A stretch of DNA of 43,865 nt from Cyanobacteria bacterium QS_8_64_29 (lineage in GTDB: Bacteria; Cyanobacteriota; Cyanobacteriia; Cyanobacteriales; Rubidibacteraceae), in NCBI GenBank assembly GCA_003022125.1, contig PXQH01000052.1, forward strand, positions 1 through 43,865, given 5' to 3'. A model generated the notes under the pieces. It saw only the letters and a list, made by a program, of their open reading frames with translations, was not told where the DNA came from and did no database searches. Position numbers and translations under genes: made by a program. Position 1 is the stretch's first letter. Every line of letters begins with the position of its first letter. This document shows, in pieces, positions 13,600-43,275 of this stretch.

Positions 13600-14367
13600 C
13601 TAGTACGTTCGCTCGAGGGCCTTGCGCCTTTTGTGTCGTTTGTGCTTTTCGACTTCGTGGTGCACTTTTCGTTCGGCTTGATGATAGTGCTTGGCTTTGT
13701 GCAGGCGGTAATAGTGAGTAATGCCACCCAGCAAAAACAGGATGCTGCCAGCAATGTACTCCCACCCCACGTAGGCAAACAAGACCCAGTTGTCTTCTAG
13801 GTTTAGCGCCTCCGATAAGTAAGGCAGCGATGCAACTAAAAACAGAATCGAGCCTAGCGCAAACGCAATAGCAGTCACATTTAGCAGTTGCAGCCGAACG
13901 ATCGACTCTTCCTTGATGATCTGGATGGCGTTCAAAAAAGCCCCAAACAGGAAAAACAGGCTGCCGACTGTAAAGCACCATCCCCCGGCCACAATCCAAT
14001 CGATTTGCGATAGAAATAACAGGCTGCCGACGGTAAAAAGCACGGTTCCGCCCACGTAAATACCGGCGATCACGAGCTCCAGCCAACTCCAGATTTTGGA
14101 GCCCTTTCCGGACCTAACGTAGGCCGAGGATTCCAATAAGTCGTAGCCGGTCACGAGCAAATAGACCAGCGAGCCGATAAAGAATATCCATGCCCCTAAA
14201 TCAGATAGGGCTTCGTATTGGGGCAGGAAAAAGATGCTGCCCAGAATAAAGGTCGAGCCGCCGACAATGTAGAGGATGGCACTCGTCCGTTCCCAATTTA
14301 AGCGGCCTGCACCTAACCTGGCCGGAAACAGGCGCTGGCGGGGTCGGTTGGTAAATAGGCGTGGCAT
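13600..14367 (-). CDS. YrhK-like membrane protein with three tandem repeats
   Basis: A 255-residue membrane protein with six spans arranged as three two-helix units (about residues 29-79, 101-153 and 160-218). Each unit carries two GS(I/L/T)-type motifs, such as FILGSIFFLPQ and FFIGSLVYLL, as in the YrhK-like domain (function unknown). YrhK proteins often have one or two such units; three in one chain is unusual to my knowledge. The C-terminal tail of about 35 residues is extremely His/Lys/Arg-rich (YYRLHKAKHYHQAERKVHHE). This could bind metal or acidic lipids, by inference only. The gene is less GC-rich than its left neighbours and has no HIP1 site. Confidence 0.75.
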   Translation of the reverse strand: MPRLFTNRPRQRLFPARLGAGRLNWERTSAILYIVGGSTFILGSIFFLPQYEALSDLGAWIFFIGSLVYLLVTGYDLLESSAYVRSGKGSKIWSWLELVIAGIYVGGTVLFTVGSLLFLSQIDWIVAGGWCFTVGSLFFLFGAFLNAIQIIKEESIVRLQLLNVTAIAFALGSILFLVASLPYLSEALNLEDNWVLFAYVGWEYIAGSILFLLGGITHYYRLHKAKHYHQAERKVHHEVEKHKRHKRRKALERTY

Positions 14368-14403
14368 AGGGCGCGCTAGGCCATGACGCTCTCGCTCACT
14401 ATA

Positions 14404-14448
14404 CTAGTGCAATTTGCCTCATACCAATTCTCGTGGCTTGTGCACTAG
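14404..14448. repeat. Inverted repeat CTAGTGCA / TGCACTAG
   Basis: Two perfect 8-base arms lie at 14404-14411 and 14441-14448. The position between a core gene and a hydrolase remnant fits an old element end, but no transposase is present. Confidence 0.45.
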
Positions 14449-14462
14449 ATTGCGATCTCCAA

Positions 14463-14483
14463 AACTCCTTCAATATAGGAGTT
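14463..14483. repeat. Short hairpin, 7-bp stem
   Basis: AACTCCT at 14463-14469 pairs with AGGAGTT at 14477-14483 around a 7-base loop TCAATAT. No T tract follows on either strand, so a simple intrinsic terminator is not supported. Confidence 0.4.
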
Positions 14484-14516
14484 ATGAACTTTGGTCAGCG
14501 TGCATCTGCTGCTCAA

Positions 14517-14765
14517 ATTCTGCTCAGCCGGCGCGCTCAACGGCTGCTGCAGGGCGGTGTAGGCTGCAATGCCATCGCCGTCGGCGCTCCGCTCGGTTGG
14601 GGGGCCCTAGCTGTGGCCGTAGCCGCGGTAGTCGTAGGCCGGCACGGCAAAGCCAGACTGCTGCAGGGCAGTCAGTTCGGCAGTGCAGAAAGCGAACGGA
14701 ACGTAAGCGATCACCAGCACCACACCAACCAGGATGCGGCAACCAGGATCGGGGGTCCCACAAAA
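14517..14765 (-). pseudogene. Remnant of a membrane-anchored alpha/beta hydrolase
   Basis: Read on the minus strand, one frame gives a hydrophobic anchor (ILVGVVLVIAYVPFAF), then LTALQQSGFAVPAYDYRGYGHS, an in-frame TAG (14607-14609), and GPPTERSADGDGIAAYTALQQ. The DYRGYGHS...GPPTER...DGxxAxxxL pattern is the strand/loop region of BEM46-type hydrolases. Compare VDYRGYGRSDGPFPNEQRVYQDAKAA in the intact gene at 41489-42382. The oxyanion region between anchor and DYRGYG is missing, and so is the nucleophile GHSLGG. So this is a decayed fragment with an internal deletion and a nonsense codon, not a working gene. Confidence 0.6.
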
Positions 14766-14847
14766 CTAACAAGCTTTTAAAGCAAGTCAGCTACTCAGAA
14801 AGGGGACTCAGAAACGCTTCCAGCCGGTACAAGATTAGCACTCTGCG

Positions 14848-15537
14848 TTACCTCCATACTCTGGTTTCGTAGTTAATTCTATACGCGTTAGTAATATTTT
14901 TCCATAGCTGCTGATAGAGAGGATTTTTAGCTTTTGTTTTCTTAGGTTGCAACAATTTAACTCCAGATTTCAGCTCGAACTCATCATAAAAAGGTCTATG
15001 ATTGATTATGTCCTCAACGACCGAATTAAGCCGCTTTTCGCCAATACCATTGACGTTGCCAAGCTTTGCCTCTAATGTCCTTTGCGGTTCCAAGTTAACT
15101 AATAGCTCAGTATCAGGAACAACTTGTTGAAATATGCGCTCGGCTCGATCCTGCTGCCTCTCTAGAGTCTGCTCGATCGACTCGAGCTTTCTCTGGATCG
15201 GTGTCAAATCAACGCTGCTGCCGTTTCCATCCGAGGCTTGCAAGATTTGCGCTTTTTCGATCTGATTCGCTACCCCTTCATCCTCATCCACCTGAATGCA
15301 GTAGGCAACTTTTTGATCGGCTCGCTTGGTAGCCTCTAATATTACTGGACTACCAATTAATTGGTAGTTATGTCTGCCCAGCTCGCGCACGTAGACTGGT
15401 ACCCAGTTTCGTCCCTTTTCTCGAATGCTAAGGGCAAGCTCGTTGGCTAGTGAGGCTTCTTGCTCAGTAATCTCTCGATTGTAGCTTATGTTTTTGGTTG
15501 CTGTTTTTATAAGCTCCCCAATATTTGCTTTTCCCAT
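14848..15537 (-). CDS. ParB-like / coiled-coil / helix-hairpin-helix protein
   Basis: A 229-residue protein following the nuclease-ParA gene by 9 bases, with TGAGG overlapping that gene's stop as its ribosome-binding site. Residues 17-85 resemble a ParB N-terminal domain (ITEQEASLANELALSIREKG, then RNWVPVYVREL and YQLIGSPVILEA), but the GERR box used by CTP-binding ParB proteins is replaced by GSPV. Residues 112-140 form a likely coiled coil (IQRKLESIEQTLERQQDRAE). Residues 152-186 look like a helix-hairpin-helix DNA-binding unit (VNGIGEKRLNSVVEDIINHRPF). The basic tail ends in RVWR. Related ParB-like proteins occur on cyanobacterial plasmids. It may be the DNA-binding partner of the ATPase. 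Exact function is unknown. Confidence 0.75.
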   Translation of the reverse strand: MGKANIGELIKTATKNISYNREITEQEASLANELALSIREKGRNWVPVYVRELGRHNYQLIGSPVILEATKRADQKVAYCIQVDEDEGVANQIEKAQILQASDGNGSSVDLTPIQRKLESIEQTLERQQDRAERIFQQVVPDTELLVNLEPQRTLEAKLGNVNGIGEKRLNSVVEDIINHRPFYDEFELKSGVKLLQPKKTKAKNPLYQQLWKNITNAYRINYETRVWR

Positions 15538-15546
15538 AATATTGCC

Positions 15547-16878
15547 TCATTTGCTCGAGTCAACAAAAATCGAATTAGCCAGGCTTAGAAAGTTTTTAGT
15601 GGCTTTGTTATTAGGTGACTTAAAAACGACTGGTTTCTGGGCATCTATTGATTTAACTGTCTCTGCATATCGCCCCATAACCCAATCTCGCCACTCTATA
15701 TCAAATTCCTCCAATTGTTCTCGCACTCTTTTGACGGAATTCTCGCCAGTTTCGCCTTGGAAAAGGCAATTGACGATGCACCCGTAAACCATCGGTGGTT
15801 CGCTAGTCTCATCTTCTTCTTGAAACTCTTCCGATGTAAGATAGCGAGTTCGAAGATCTTTGACGGCCTCTACGGCAAACTTTGAATCATCGATCACTGG
15901 AATCAAAATATCTGAAGCATGAGCGGCCATCTTGCCAAACGGTATCCACGATGGGGAGGCATCAATAAAGATGTAGTCGTAATGGCCGCAGGCTTCTTCT
16001 AGTAGGTCCTGTAGCGCTGTCATCTGCGCCGTACCCTCAGGTCCCCTGCGTTCAACTGATTTGATCGATTCATCTCCGGGTATGACATAGAGTTTATAAA
16101 TTTGGCTGGAGCCAAATAGCGCCTGTCCTGGCAACCGCGAACGTCTGACCTCAAACGATTGCTCCCGGATAAGATGGTCAGGTCGAACTTCCCCAACACC
16201 GGTGGCAGCGTCATCGAGCGCTTCTTGCATTGTGACAGGCGGAGTATAGTCCCACATCTGGGGGAAGCCTGTTAGCGTGTTTAGATCGCCTTGCAGGTCG
16301 AAGTTGACCAAAAGAACCTTGGCATCTTGCTCCTGGGCCAACGCTGCCCCTAAGTTAGCTGTCATGGTCGTTTTACCAACGCCTCCCTTTTTGGCCCAAA
16401 ACATGGCAGTTAGCGCTCGCCTGGGAGACTCAAGGCGAGCGCGTATCTCGCTCAAGATTTGCTCAATGTTGCTAGCAGATAAATTATAAAGCGGCGTTCT
16501 CAGAACGGAAATGGCGCCGTGCCGCTGCCATAGCTGCAGTTGCAGTCCATTAGTGGCGAGACCAAACTGGGCCGAAGACACCGCCATTTGCTCTCGAACT
16601 TCTTGAATGGCTTGGCCGATCAAGTTTTTATTGACCGACTTGTGCTCGACCACCAGTATGGGGTGCGAGAAACTATCTGATTTGCGATAGCATGCATAGT
16701 CGGGGATAATATTTTTCTTTTTGCTGTTATTGCGATTGCGAAATCCTTTGGATTTTGAGACTTCAGTCTTCTTGAAGCCCAATCCCTCATACAGAAGCGC
16801 TGACGTGAATAGTTTGTCTAGATCGGCTTCCGATGTTCCGACAGGGATTTCGTCAAATATAGCCTGCCAATCCACCAT
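15547..16878 (-). CDS. Fusion of a restriction-nuclease-like domain and a ParA-family ATPase
   Basis: A 443-residue protein. Residues about 15-135 look like the N-terminal nuclease domain of type I restriction HsdR proteins. They show IIPDYACYR (Asp60), PILVVEHK (Glu78, Lys80: a D-ExK pattern), a following Gln helix (QAIQEVREQM) and FGLATNGLQLQLW. Residues 155-430 are a ParA/MinD ATPase with the deviant Walker A KKGGVGKTT (Lys164 and Lys169), LLVNFDLQGDLN (Walker A', Asp194), and YDYIFIDASPS (Asp306). All visible catalytic residues of both domains are kept. The ParB-like gene follows directly. The gene is AT-richer than its neighbours and without HIP1 sites, so probably acquired. A plasmid-type partition ATPase with a DNA-binding nuclease fold, or a defence system, are both possible. 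Confidence 0.8.
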   Translation of the reverse strand: MVDWQAIFDEIPVGTSEADLDKLFTSALLYEGLGFKKTEVSKSKGFRNRNNSKKKNIIPDYACYRKSDSFSHPILVVEHKSVNKNLIGQAIQEVREQMAVSSAQFGLATNGLQLQLWQRHGAISVLRTPLYNLSASNIEQILSEIRARLESPRRALTAMFWAKKGGVGKTTMTANLGAALAQEQDAKVLLVNFDLQGDLNTLTGFPQMWDYTPPVTMQEALDDAATGVGEVRPDHLIREQSFEVRRSRLPGQALFGSSQIYKLYVIPGDESIKSVERRGPEGTAQMTALQDLLEEACGHYDYIFIDASPSWIPFGKMAAHASDILIPVIDDSKFAVEAVKDLRTRYLTSEEFQEEDETSEPPMVYGCIVNCLFQGETGENSVKRVREQLEEFDIEWRDWVMGRYAETVKSIDAQKPVVFKSPNNKATKNFLSLANSIFVDSSK

Positions 16879-18461: not shown

Positions 18462-19535
18462 ATGGCAGACCGCATCCTCGTGGGCTTATCGGGCGGGGTC
18501 GATAGTTCGGTAACCGCCGCCACGTTGCAGCAGCAAGGCTACGACGTCACCGGCGTCTCGCTCTGGTTGATGCAGGGTGGGGGCCAGTGCTGCTCGGAAG
18601 GCATTGTGGATGCCGCCGCCATCTGCGAGCAGCTGGGCATTGCCCACCACGTGGTCGATACGCGCGAGCTGTTTCGCGAGCATGTCATCGACCCGCTCGT
18701 GAGCGGCTACAGCACCGGCATCACGCCGCTGCCCTGCGCCCAGTGCAACCGCTCGGTCAAATTCGGCCCCATGCTGCGCTATGCGCGCGAGGTGCTGGGC
18801 ATCGAGCGCATCGCCACCGGGCATTACGCCCGCATCCGCTACGACGCCGGGCGTGATCGCTACCAACTGCTGCGCGCAGTGGACCAGCACAAAGATCAGT
18901 CCTACTTTCTGTACGGCCTGCCGCAAGAGCAGCTAGCCGCCATTGCGTTCCCGCTGGGGGAGCAAACTAAAGGCCAAACGCGCCAAATCGCGGCCCAGCT
19001 AGGGCTCAGAACGGCCGATAAGCCCGACAGCCAGGATTTGTGCGTTGCCGACAGTTACGGCTCGATGCAGGAATTTCTGGATGAGTACATTGCCCCGGTT
19101 GAGGGCGACATTGTCGATACCGCGGGCAACGTCCTGGGCAAGCACCAAGGCGTGCACCACTTCACCATCGGCCAGCGGCGCGGGTTAGGCATTGCGGCTG
19201 GCGAGCGCCTCTACGTCACGGCCCTGGATGCGAGCGCCAACCAGGTCGTCGTTGGCAACCGCCAGCACGCCACCAGCACTGAATGCACAGCCAGCGGTTT
19301 CAACTGGATCTCAATGCCCGAACCGAGCGCGCCGCTGCGAGCGCAAGTGCAGGTGCGCTCGCGCATGGCACCAGCGCCGGTCACGGCCGTGCCGTTAGGG
19401 GAAGGCCGGATGCGGCTGCTGTTTGACGAGCCCGAGTTCAGCATTACGCCGGGGCAAGCAGCCGTCCTCTACGACGGCGATTGCCTGCTGGGCGGGGGCA
19501 CCATCGAGCGCTCGCCGCCATCGGCAGGCGGGTAG
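18462..19535 (+). CDS. mnmA: tRNA-specific 2-thiouridylase
   Basis: A 357-residue ATP-dependent enzyme that makes 2-thiouridine at U34 of Lys, Glu and Gln tRNAs. The P-loop pyrophosphatase motif is [16 protein letters not shown] at the N-terminus. The catalytic cysteines are in [13 protein letters not shown] (about residue 100) and SQDLCVAD (about residue 200). [17 protein letters not shown] and [13 protein letters not shown] are also typical. The chain ends with the normal [24 protein letters not shown] 18462 gives the standard start; an in-frame ATG at 18402 is less likely. Its 3' end overlaps the opposite-strand methylase by 67 bases. Confidence 0.97.
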
Positions 19536-20428
19536 TTGGCAATCAGCAGCTCGTTGATGGCCCCGCGGCGGTCGGGCTTGCTGTTGATGGCGCGCGTCGC
19601 CGCGACGCGCTCGATCCAGTAGCCCCGATAAGCCGCATCGAAAAACGCATCGTCGGGGTCGGCGTTGCGCGGATCGGCATTGCTCAGCAGCAGCTTGGCC
19701 CCCTTGGCATCTAGGCGGGCGAACCAATCGCGCAGCCGCAGCTGTTCGGCATCGTCGAAGGCGGCCGGGGCATAGGCATTGAAGCGGGCGGTTTTGCCGA
19801 TGGGGCGGTAGGGCGGGTCGAGATAGACCAGCGTCTGCCCGTCAATGGCAGGTTCGCAGTGGGTAAAGTCGCCCCACCCGATCCGCGCGCGCTGCAGCAG
19901 TTGGGCAACGGCCCGCAGGTTGGCCGCATCGCAGATGCGGGGGCGGGCGTAGCGCCCGAAGGGGACGTTGAACTCGCCGCGAGCGTTGACGCGAAAGAGG
20001 CCGTTAAAGCAGGTGCGGTTGAGAAAGATCAGCTGCGCGGCGCGCTCGATGCGATCAGCGCTGGTGGGCGAGGCGCGGTTAAAAGCGGCGCGCACTTGGT
20101 AAAAATAGGTCCGGCGCTCGGGCTCGGCGAGGCGCTCGTAGTGTGCCTGAATCTGGGCGAGGCGCTCGATAAGCGGCTCGACAGCCTCCCGGACGGCCGT
20201 GTAGGCCAGCGCTAGCTCGGCGCTGCGATCGGCGAGGAAAAACTCGGCAACAGGATAGTGCTGGGCGACGTGCAAAAAAACGGCCCCGCTGCCCACAAAC
20301 GGCTCGACGTAGCGCGCGATCGCGCCGTTGGCGAGCTCGGCCGGCAAGCGCCGGTCAATGTAGGCCAGCAACTGGCCCTTACCGCCCGCCCACTTCAAAA
20401 AGGGCTTGGCTGACTGGTAGGTTGGCAT
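19469..20428 (-). CDS. dam: Dam-type DNA adenine-N6 methyltransferase
   Basis: A 319-residue D12-class methylase, the family that methylates adenine in GATC. It shows [15 protein letters not shown] (SAM-binding motif X), the target region [16 protein letters not shown] (motif I), [18 protein letters not shown], and [12 protein letters not shown] (catalytic DPPY, motif IV). ELLIANY closes the conserved part; about 17 further residues run into the opposite strand of mnmA. No restriction gene is nearby, so it looks like an orphan methylase. HIP1 (GCGATCGC), abundant in this genome, contains GATC, so this enzyme would be expected to methylate HIP1 sites if it has Dam specificity. Specificity is inferred. 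Confidence 0.88.
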
Positions 20429-42408: not shown

Positions 42409-43275
42409 CTACCAGACAAAATCGGCAACGGGATCGCACTGCTCGAACGGTACGGCACTAGCGCCACCCAGCAGCACCGTCCGCTGCCGCAGGCCCTCAA
42501 CGCGCCTGGCAACGCGCTGGGGAATGCCGTAACCGCAGGCAACATGGCCTTTACCGGCTAGGACCACAATCGCGCGATCGCGGTTTTGCCGGTGGAGGCG
42601 CGCAATCCGCTGGGCCATGGTTTCGTCCCACAAGATCTGGGTGGCCCAAAAGCGCTCGAAGCCTTGGCGCTGCCGGCTACGGGGAGGGTCCCGATAGACT
42701 TGCCGAATAGCCCGGCGGTACTCGGGTGGACCGAGCTGCATTTGCGAGGGTGGGGGCAGGCAGCGCCACTCGGCGCTGCTCAGGCTCGCCAGGCCCTGCC
42801 GGGCAACTTGGCGTGCGGCCTCGGTGGGCGCATTCAGGGCTATCGCCGGCAACGCGCGGCTGCGGGCAAAGCGCAAGATGGGGGCGTAGTACTGCCAGGG
42901 GAATCCCCAGCGCTGCTCGTACTCGCTGCGCTCGCGCAGCTCGGTGTCGCTAATGTCACCGGCCAAGTAGCGATCCAGCGCGTCCTGAAAGGGCTGCTGG
43001 AACATCTCCATCGCGATGGTCAGTCGGTCGCGCTGGCGCGCCAGCGCCTGGATGATGGCTAGCTCGTCGCGGTGGTCCTGAGGCTGGGCGTGGGTCTCGC
43101 CCAAATAGACAACGTCCGCCTGAGCTAGGGCTTGCACGGTTTCCATCCGCGACAGTTGCCGCTCGCGCTTGGGAGAGTGCTCGTCGCCTAGCGCCGGCGG
43201 GGCCCCCCAGCACAACCCAGCCAGCACGACGGCAACAAGCGCACACACCAAGTCGAATGGCTGGTAGTGGTACAT
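42409..43275 (-). CDS. ChaN-like protein (DUF399, iron-regulated family)
   Basis: A 288-residue protein with an N-terminal secretion signal (LVCALVAVVLAGLCWGAPPALG). The family pattern is QADVVYLGETHAQPQDHRDELAIIQAL, AMEMFQQPFQDALDRYLAGDI, FRWGFPWQYYAPILRFAR in similar form, and IVVLAGKGHVACGYGIPQRV with a His. ChaN in Campylobacter binds heme cooperatively; in cyanobacteria and plants relatives (RETICULATA/ALBINO-type fusions) have no settled role. Here it is probably an exported protein. It lies convergent with the upstream hydrolase and next to an IS remnant. Confidence 0.8.
   Translation of the reverse strand: MYHYQPFDLVCALVAVVLAGLCWGAPPALGDEHSPKRERQLSRMETVQALAQADVVYLGETHAQPQDHRDELAIIQALARQRDRLTIAMEMFQQPFQDALDRYLAGDISDTELRERSEYEQRWGFPWQYYAPILRFARSRALPAIALNAPTEAARQVARQGLASLSSAEWRCLPPPSQMQLGPPEYRRAIRQVYRDPPRSRQRQGFERFWATQILWDETMAQRIARLHRQNRDRAIVVLAGKGHVACGYGIPQRVARRVEGLRQRTVLLGGASAVPFEQCDPVADFVW

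What the first reader, a model, noticed from the sequence alone, without database searches (positions are those of the whole stretch)
14848..16878. Two-gene module: HsdR-type nuclease domain fused to a ParA ATPase, plus a ParB-like protein
The upstream protein keeps a D...ExK restriction-nuclease pattern (Asp60, Glu78, Lys80) followed by a full ParA ATPase, and the second gene follows after 9 bases. Domain order and intact motifs are seen in the sequence. ParA usually moves DNA or protein cargo. A fused nuclease-like fold could make it a DNA-degrading defence system, or a partition ATPase whose nuclease fold only binds DNA. I believe related plasmid-borne proteins exist in cyanobacteria, but I know of no functional description.
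Basis: partly seen in the sequence, partly recalled or inferred. Interest (0 to 1): 0.78.

Follow-up and report, generated by a model that had tools for sequence, protein, structure and literature searches.

The report
Nuclease-ParA fusion with ParB partner
A two-gene cassette, scattered through cyanobacterial genomes, joins a restriction-enzyme-type DNA-cutting domain to a ParA 'DNA-mover' ATPase and pairs it with a ParB-like DNA-binding protein; it is probably an unstudied ATP-controlled DNA-cutting system rather than an ordinary plasmid-partition locus.

Summary
Relatives are widespread in cyanobacteria: 39 of 292 sampled genomes, own genome included, have an N-domain match of 100 bits or more. 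The nuclease signature is under strong constraint (E17 117/118, D60 115/118, E78 118/118, K80 117/118). The partner lies downstream in 74 of 80 loci, the rest being contig ends or a broken fusion, and no third gene travels with the pair. Copies from at least 15 genomes lie on contigs over 3 Mb; the pair is poorer in GC than its flanks in 60/64 loci, and one copy sits in a site empty in two congeners. The partner lacks the GxxR nucleotide box (0/96). So this is neither a plain ParABS locus nor a type I R-M subunit. Best reading: a mobile cassette in which ATP-driven ParA dimerisation pairs two nuclease domains and the ParB-like protein targets them, probably against foreign DNA. Nuclease architecture is well supported; the biological role is inferred. 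Partition and chromosome maintenance remain live rivals.

The parts
15547..16878 (-). Fusion gene, 443 aa: PD-(D/E)XK nuclease-like domain + ParA ATPase
16429..16878 (-). N-terminal HsdR/type IIG-like nuclease domain, residues 1-150 (conserved E17 at 16828-16830, D60 at 16699-16701, E78 at 16645-16647, K80 at 16639-16641)
   Evidence: Pfam HSDR_N_2; predicted helix-strand order; VIA matches to BpuSI 3s1s Z 12.5, HsdR 3h1t Z 11.2, DrdV 7lvv Z 11.2; conservation
15550..16422 (-). ParA ATPase domain, residues 153-443; deviant Walker A KGGVGKTT at 16366-16389
14848..15537 (-). Partner gene, 229 aa: ParB/Srx-fold N-domain plus C-terminal DNA-binding-type tail
15238..15516 (-). ParB-like domain of partner, about residues 8-100; GxxR (box II) absent
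14998..15081 (-). Candidate helix-hairpin-helix of partner, residues 153-180 (NGIGEKRLNSVVEDI...); inferred from the 38%-identical partner of L010, which matches Pfam HHH_6/HHH_5/HHH below their cut-offs; the window partner itself has no HhH hit
   Evidence: low model confidence here
15349..15368 (.). Perfect 20-bp palindrome inside the partner gene, the only copy in the genome at up to 2 mismatches; possible operator or parS-like site, or chance

Best explanation
A self-contained, horizontally moving two-gene cassette that makes an ATP-gated DNA-cleaving complex. The fusion protein carries a restriction-type PD-(D/E)XK domain on a ParA ATPase. As in other ParA proteins, ATP would form a sandwich dimer that binds DNA without sequence preference; here that would bring two nuclease domains together so that both strands can be cut. 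The ParB-fold partner, which has lost the nucleotide-switch motif and carries an HhH, Rho_N or SAP-type tail in the members where a tail domain is recognised, would recruit the ATPase to target DNA and control its turnover, hence the cutting. Most likely purpose: destroying or excluding foreign replicons (phage, plasmid), with occasional capture by plasmids. Shown here: architecture, constrained nuclease signature, gene pairing, mobility, loss of GxxR. Inferred: nuclease activity, dimer gating, targeting by the partner, defence role.
For: Nuclease signature E/D/ExK kept in 115-118 of 118 sequences, spanning two clades whose fusion proteins align at 21% identity. N-domain matches nuclease domains of HsdR 3h1t (Z 11.2, 120 aligned, 2.9 A), BpuSI (Z 12.5, 142 aligned, 3.1 A) and DrdV (Z 11.2, 133 aligned, 3.4 A); the one plasmid tblastn hit of the main-clade N-domain outside the family is annotated N-6 DNA methylase (31% identity). 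Relatives mostly also keep a Q and a Y where QxxxY would fall after ExK (Q 98/118, Y 106/118), the motif that in EcoR124I HsdR lies over the active site D151/E165/K167 and is linked to ATP coupling (PMC4454674, passages). Nuclease domain under purifying selection like ParA (median dN/dS 0.22 and 0.20, partner 0.15, in 49-50 non-independent pairs). Partner in 74 of 80 loci; the other 6 are five contig ends and one broken fusion. Module GC below flanks in 60 of 64 loci and in the window (46.8% vs 64.3%). G017 carries a 2,809-bp insertion bounded by an 85-bp direct repeat at a site empty in G045 and G242. Partner GxxR absent in 96/96.
Against: No activity is shown. No clear defence-island setting: PADLOC families in 110 near vs 110 far neighbour proteins were 41 vs 16, inflated by many models hitting one protein, and the near-gene Pfam families shown (25 of 134) are mainly metabolic. 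No PADLOC model matches it beyond a P-loop stretch. Clade B is common on chromosomes and often beside another ParA, which suits a housekeeping role. On Pseudanabaena ABRG53g and L. boryana pLBA it is the only annotated ParA, and a perfect 20-bp palindrome lies in the window's partner gene; both suit partition. The window copy lacks the QxxxY pair (E93, Q97). Some copies have a frameshift or stop in the fusion (L011, L051, L057, L063), so it is dispensable or these are assembly errors. dN/dS quartiles are wide (0.15-0.52 nuclease, 0.14-0.62 ParA).
Confidence: 0.45

Rival explanations
1. A variant ParABS partition/stability locus. The nuclease fold has become a DNA-binding or autoregulatory domain, like the N-terminal HTH of type Ia ParA (recalled), and the partner is the centromere-binding protein.
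For: Gene order ParA then ParB-like; plasmid carriage; only annotated ParA on ABRG53g (12.6 kb) and on pLBA, which also carries a terminase gene (the PLSDB gene table is incomplete). A perfect 20-bp palindrome, unique in the genome, lies inside the window's partner gene; single palindromes also lie near the module in L010, L109 and six other loci.
Against: Catalytic residues stay nearly invariant; copies from at least 15 genomes lie on contigs over 3 Mb; main-clade N-domain in only 2 family plasmids of 72,556 records and clade-B N-domain in none; partner lacks GxxR and LG[RK]G (0/96); no shared repeat array in six loci, 18-bp or longer palindromes near the module in only 7 of 72 loci and mostly of unrelated sequence, and the one at L010 also occurs in the empty site of a congener; three Nostoc plasmids carrying it also carry other partition genes.
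Confidence: 0.25
2. A chromosome-maintenance system (repair, replication-fork or chromosome-copy handling in polyploid cyanobacteria) in which a ParA-positioned nuclease acts on the host's own DNA.
For: Clade B occurs on chromosome-size contigs in many genomes, nuclease domain and partner pass Pfam cut-offs in L141 and L142, and in 6 of 10 loci printed (of 14 fetched) it lies beside another ~300-aa ParA.
Against: Clade A, to which the window belongs, is patchy, low in GC and recently gained in G017; two genomes of the same genus do without it.
Confidence: 0.2
3. An addiction (toxin-antitoxin) pair: nuclease-ParA as toxin, ParB-like protein as antitoxin.
For: Two adjacent, often overlapping genes, mobile, nearly always paired. 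Where the fusion is frameshifted the partner can remain intact (L051, L063), as an antitoxin might.
Against: A large ATPase fusion and a DNA-binding ParB fold are unlike pairs known to me; in L091 and L093 the broken fusion has no partner left, so there is no consistent pattern.
Confidence: 0.07

Closest known systems
Type I HsdR / type IIG (BpuSI, DrdV) nuclease domains (HSDR_N, PD-(D/E)XK)
   Same: Fold match, D-ExK signature, N-terminal nuclease on a larger enzyme; most relatives keep a QxxxY-like pair
   Different: Motor is ParA, not a helicase-type translocase; no methylase or specificity domain in the pair
ParABS partition systems (Soj/ParA + Spo0J/ParB)
   Same: Complete ParA ATPase followed by a ParB-fold protein
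   Different: Nuclease domain on ParA; partner lacks GxxR and LG[RK]G; HhH/Rho_N/SAP-type tails where recognised; no shared parS found
Orphan/fused ParB-CTPase-fold proteins (PNAS 2025 survey, PMC12704722, passages read)
   Same: ParB fold with lineage-specific C-terminal domains, linked to mobile elements
   Different: The survey used Pfam gathering cut-offs; the clade-A partners scanned singly here fall below that of ParB_N. GxxR, nearly invariable there, is absent here
Two-gene nuclease/ATPase defence systems such as Hachiman (start of abstract seen in the listing)
   Same: Nuclease restrained by an NTPase in a two-gene cassette (analogy only)
   Different: ATPase is ParA, not a helicase; I know of no defence assay for this pair

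Membership tests
PD-(D/E)XK restriction-type nuclease (HSDR_N) | alpha-beta-beta-beta-alpha-beta core fold | tested here: met
   Predicted order H17-32, E40-42, E61-63, E75-79, H89-101, E105-109; VIA 3h1t Z 11.2, 7lvv Z 11.2, 3s1s Z 12.5. Foldseek's first 50 rows showed only ParA/MinD-type chains
PD-(D/E)XK restriction-type nuclease (HSDR_N) | Conserved D...ExK active-site residues | tested here: met
   D60 115/118, E78 118/118, K80 117/118, E17 117/118. Their meeting in one site was not measured
PD-(D/E)XK restriction-type nuclease (HSDR_N) | QxxxY motif of many HsdR (no clear one in family IA per PMC4454674) | tested here: not met
   Window copy has E93/Q97; relatives keep Q (98/118) and Y (106/118). 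Not defining for all HsdR
PD-(D/E)XK restriction-type nuclease (HSDR_N) | Metal-dependent DNA cleavage | not testable with these tools
   needs protein
ParA ATPase | Deviant Walker A (KGGxGKTT), Walker A' aspartate, ParA fold | tested here: met
   K164, K169, T170 118/118 (sequences had been picked by a Walker pattern), D194 117/118; Z up to 13.6 to Soj/ParA
ParABS partition system | ParB nucleotide-binding box II (GxxR) | tested here: not met
   0 of 96 partners have R at that position; three canonical ParBs from the Nostoc plasmids keep GERR in the same alignment
ParABS partition system | ParA-binding LG-R/K-GL peptide | tested here: not met
   Pattern LG[RK]G in 0 of 96 in the first 40 residues; 35 of 96 have any R/K in residues 2-12. 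P1-type ParBs also diverge here (PMC12704722)
ParABS partition system | Central HTH reading parS | tested here: inconclusive
   No HTH family among the Pfam hits of 18 partners; Rho_N, SAP, HeH and HhH in some; tail of the model is low confidence
ParABS partition system | parS-type site near the operon | tested here: inconclusive
   No shared array in six loci or in 12 aligned upstream regions; 7 of 72 loci have an 18-bp or longer palindrome near the module; the window has one of 20 bp in the partner gene, single in its genome
Type I R-M (HsdR subunit) | Helicase-type motor domain | tested here: not met
   No helicase domain in the fusion; it is the only HSDR_N_2 match in the genome
Type I R-M (HsdR subunit) | HsdM and HsdS partners | not tested
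   Neither lies in the pair; the rest of the genome was not searched for them
Known anti-phage defence systems (PADLOC-DB 2.0) | Match to a system model | tested here: not met
   Only PDC-M28B, E 3.4e-5, over 44 residues around the P-loop; partner none
Toxin-antitoxin | Toxicity neutralised by the partner | not testable with these tools
   needs expression

The most novel reading that the evidence does not exclude
The first DNA-cleaving system gated by a ParA ATPase: a nucleoid-surveying ParA-nuclease, licensed by a ParB-fold targeting protein that has given up the nucleotide switch, which finds and cuts foreign replicons in cyanobacteria without R-M-type self-marking.
Probability: 0.35. Interest if true: 0.88.

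Novelty: new variant of a known kind. Interest (0 to 1): 0.66.

Why it matters
ParA/ParB machinery is known for moving DNA and other cargo. A widespread ParA with a constrained restriction-type active site, paired with a ParB-fold protein that lacks the NTP box, suggests the partition machinery was turned into a cutting machine. Directly testable questions follow: does ParA dimerisation gate a nuclease, how does a ParB fold work without GxxR, and is this a defence layer missed because it does not sit in recognisable defence islands?

Tried and rejected
Defence-island test: 110 near and 110 far neighbour proteins (picked from 247 and 347) were scanned with PADLOC; 41 vs 16 families matched. Only 25 of the 41 are listed, 14 of those being RmrA models with one member each. 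I read this as inconclusive, not as enrichment. Pfam of the near set, 25 of 134 families shown, is mainly metabolic; the far set was not scanned with Pfam.

parS search: repeats in six loci and an alignment of 12 upstream regions gave no shared array. On re-checking I found a perfect 20-bp palindrome in the window's partner gene, with no second copy in the genome at up to 2 mismatches, and palindromes of 18 bp or more near the module in 7 of 72 loci. The one at L010 also occurs in the empty site of G242. Some 60-80 nt upstream of the start look conserved among most of the 12 loci; not pursued.

Close-relative scans with the window protein alone found nothing in genome contigs or viral contigs; relatives came from the genome search, plasmids and the family alignment. 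HMM search of PDB sequences with the N-domain gave only chance-level hits. No match in the annotated phage set for the main-clade N-domain. Rfam and tRNA scans of the window: nothing. One alignment (A4) placed D60 off the family's Asp; it was replaced.

Rows dropped before counts: 4 of 122 distinct sequences lacked the Walker pattern used for trimming and were left out of the 118; L093 had no intact ORF and is outside the 80. The 118 and the 96 are distinct strings but include close relatives, and the whole_genomes set overlaps genome contigs and plasmids (e.g. G095:C10 has the length of the Nostoc unnamed9 plasmid). Of 14 clade-B loci fetched, 10 were printed.

Full report
What is there. On the minus strand, 15547-16878 encodes 443 aa and 14848-15537 encodes 229 aa, with 9 bases between them. 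The first protein has a ParA-type ATPase at residues 153-443 (AAA_31 3.9e-20; structure matches to Soj/ParA up to Z 13.6) and an N-terminal domain that Pfam calls HSDR_N_2 (23.0 bits, cut-off 25; 26.0 bits in the genome-level search). Neighbouring genes are of chromosomal type: geranylgeranyl reductase-like, mnmA-like, a D12 adenine methylase, DUF501 and a Na/Ala symporter family gene. The module has 46.8% GC against 64.3% for the window, so it looks acquired.

Nuclease domain. The predicted order is helix 17-32, strands 40-42, 61-63 and 75-79, helix 89-101, strand 105-109. D60 directly precedes the second strand and E78/K80 lie at the end of the third, the PD-(D/E)XK layout. Block confidence is 71 or more over residues 1-40 and 61-150 but about 60 over 41-60, where D60 lies. 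VIA-align matches the domain to HsdR 3h1t (Z 11.2, 2.9 A, 120 residues), DrdV (Z 11.2, 3.4 A, 133 residues) and BpuSI (Z 12.5, 3.1 A, 142 residues, one alignment that runs past the domain), all restriction enzymes; Foldseek's own first 50 rows are all ParA/MinD-type chains. Conservation is the stronger evidence: 18 sequences, 17 relatives at 23-41% identity, share E17, D60, E78 and K80 as invariant columns, and 118 distinct sequences keep them in 117, 115, 118 and 117. Relatives mostly also keep Q (98/118) and Y (106/118) where QxxxY would fall; the window copy does not (E93, Q97). In EcoR124I HsdR this motif lies over the D151/E165/K167 site and is implicated in coupling ATP to cleavage; family IA HsdR lack a clear one (PMC4454674, passages). 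Median dN/dS in 49-50 close, non-independent pairs is 0.22 for the nuclease part (quartiles 0.15-0.52), 0.20 for ParA (0.14-0.62) and 0.15 for the partner. The domain looks kept working, not decaying.

Partner. About residues 10-90 fold confidently as a ParB/sulfiredoxin domain (Foldseek and VIA: Noc, ParB, KorB, Srx). 14 of 18 partners match ParB_N at E<=0.1, and two of three clade-B partners pass its cut-off. None of 96 partners has the R of the GxxR box that three canonical ParBs from the Nostoc plasmids keep in the same alignment. The 2025 survey of the fold reports GxxR as nearly invariable among CTP, ATP and GTP binders and gives LG-R/K-GL as the ParA-binding motif (PMC12704722, passages); no partner has LG[RK]G in its first 40 residues. 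The C-terminal tail varies: Rho_N/SAP/HeH in some, helix-hairpin-helix (below cut-offs) in the window's nearest relative L010, no hit in others.

Pairing and distribution. In 80 loci with an ORF across the match (of 81 fetched) the partner lies downstream in 74. The other 6 are contig ends (L055, L057, L087, L094, L104) and one broken fusion (L091); L093, outside the 80, is also broken and without partner. In L051 and L063 the fusion is frameshifted and the partner remains. No other gene family recurs in more than 7 loci. Of 292 genomes sampled evenly from the phylum, 86 have an N-domain match at E<=0.001, 39 of them, own genome included, at 100 bits or more; the weaker ones include a second clade and longer proteins with a similar domain. 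All 80 titled loci returned, of 112 found, are cyanobacterial. Copies from at least 15 genomes, clade B not counted, lie on contigs over 3 Mb. On plasmids the main-clade N-domain occurs in 2 family records of 72,556, and the clade-B N-domain in none; other clades occur on ABRG53g, pPg_01, pLBA and Nostoc unnamed10. Three Nostoc plasmids with the module also carry other partition genes, but ABRG53g and pLBA show no other annotated ParA, and pLBA carries a terminase gene, so it may be a phage-plasmid. One IMG/VR contig carries the pair (L109); I did not test whether it is a phage.

A second clade (e.g. L141, L142, L148) has the same architecture, with HSDR_N_2 and ParB_N both over Pfam cut-offs in L141 and L142, and L141 aligns with the first clade along nuclease plus ParA (hhalign 3.6e-51, 21% identity). 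In 6 of 10 loci printed it lies beside another ~300-aa ParA (L141, L143, L148, L149, L153, and L150, where the neighbour looks like the same ParA without the nuclease). This clade may have a more housekeeping role.

Mobility. In G017, which holds the window's nearest relative (41% identity), the module lies in a 2,809-bp insertion between two copies of an 85-bp repeat, together with a 364-bp fragment of the neighbouring Uma2-like gene (my reading of the ORF; not tested by a family search). Two genomes of the same genus, G045 and G242, have the same flanks (about 94-96% identical) and no module. Module GC is below the flanks in 60 of 64 loci (mean -5.8 points).

parS. No shared repeat array was found. 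A perfect 20-bp palindrome lies at 15349-15368, inside the window's partner gene, with no second copy in the genome at up to 2 mismatches; 7 of 72 related loci have an 18-bp or longer palindrome near the module, mostly of unrelated sequence. A single operator or parS-like site is therefore not excluded.

Interpretation. A ParA dimer forms on ATP and binds DNA without sequence preference (established for the family; recalled). Two fused restriction domains would then sit side by side; type IIG nuclease domains carry one catalytic site each and are thought to cut duplex DNA by transient dimerisation (PMC3874165, passages). ParA could therefore be the gate. The partner, having lost the nucleotide switch, would be a recruiter or ATPase regulator. 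Nearly invariant catalytic residues and mobile, patchy, low-GC distribution favour a conflict role over partition; lack of clear defence-island clustering, the clade-B context, the palindrome and the plasmids where it is the only annotated ParA argue for caution. The paper searches (listings; passages of six papers; a seventh gave no passage) showed no description of this pair; the library is open-access only.

Noticed in passing
window 19469-20428 (-): D12-class N6-adenine DNA methylase (Pfam 2.2e-49), 2.6 kb from the module; probably an orphan Dam-type enzyme (inference), no sign of linkage to the module.
   Followed up: no
window 13600-14367 (-): YrhK-like protein with three matched stretches of the domain, in a stretch of lowered GC next to the module.
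   Followed up: no
window 15349-15368: Perfect 20-bp palindrome inside the partner gene, single in the genome at up to 2 mismatches; two other perfect palindromes of 18 bp or more in the window lie at 2272-2295 and 43030-43047.
   Followed up: partly
window 14367-14848: About 480 bases without a clear gene between the YrhK-like gene and the partner gene; a 15-nt direct repeat lies 114 bases apart.
   Followed up: no
L140 9343-12744: Recent insertion carrying the module with an 85-bp duplicated flank, a fragment of a Uma2-like gene and a small 70-codon ORF; the site is empty in two congeners.
   Followed up: yes
L141, L143, L148, L149, L150, L153: A second clade of the same fusion plus partner, next to another ~300-aa ParA; in L150 that neighbour looks like the same ParA without a nuclease domain.
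   Followed up: partly
L096 9578-11344 and L091 9512-10687: Open frame extends upstream by about 130 residues (MTYSPTLVQEKLDYGF... in L096), perhaps a further fused domain in Xenococcus-type copies.
   Followed up: no
L087 6254-6645: The first 49-68 codons of the partner gene occur twice in tandem in Okeania hirsuta; in the related copies L086 and L090 the partner starts about 360-630 bases after the fusion.
   Followed up: no
L024 (G059): Fusion gene interrupted within the nuclease domain, with a transposase-like ORF downstream and no partner found within the 3.3-kb locus.
   Followed up: no
G000 (own genome): No ParB_N match over the Pfam cut-off anywhere in the 2.2-Mb assembly, only an 83-aa frame of about sulfiredoxin size at 25 bits.
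   Followed up: partly
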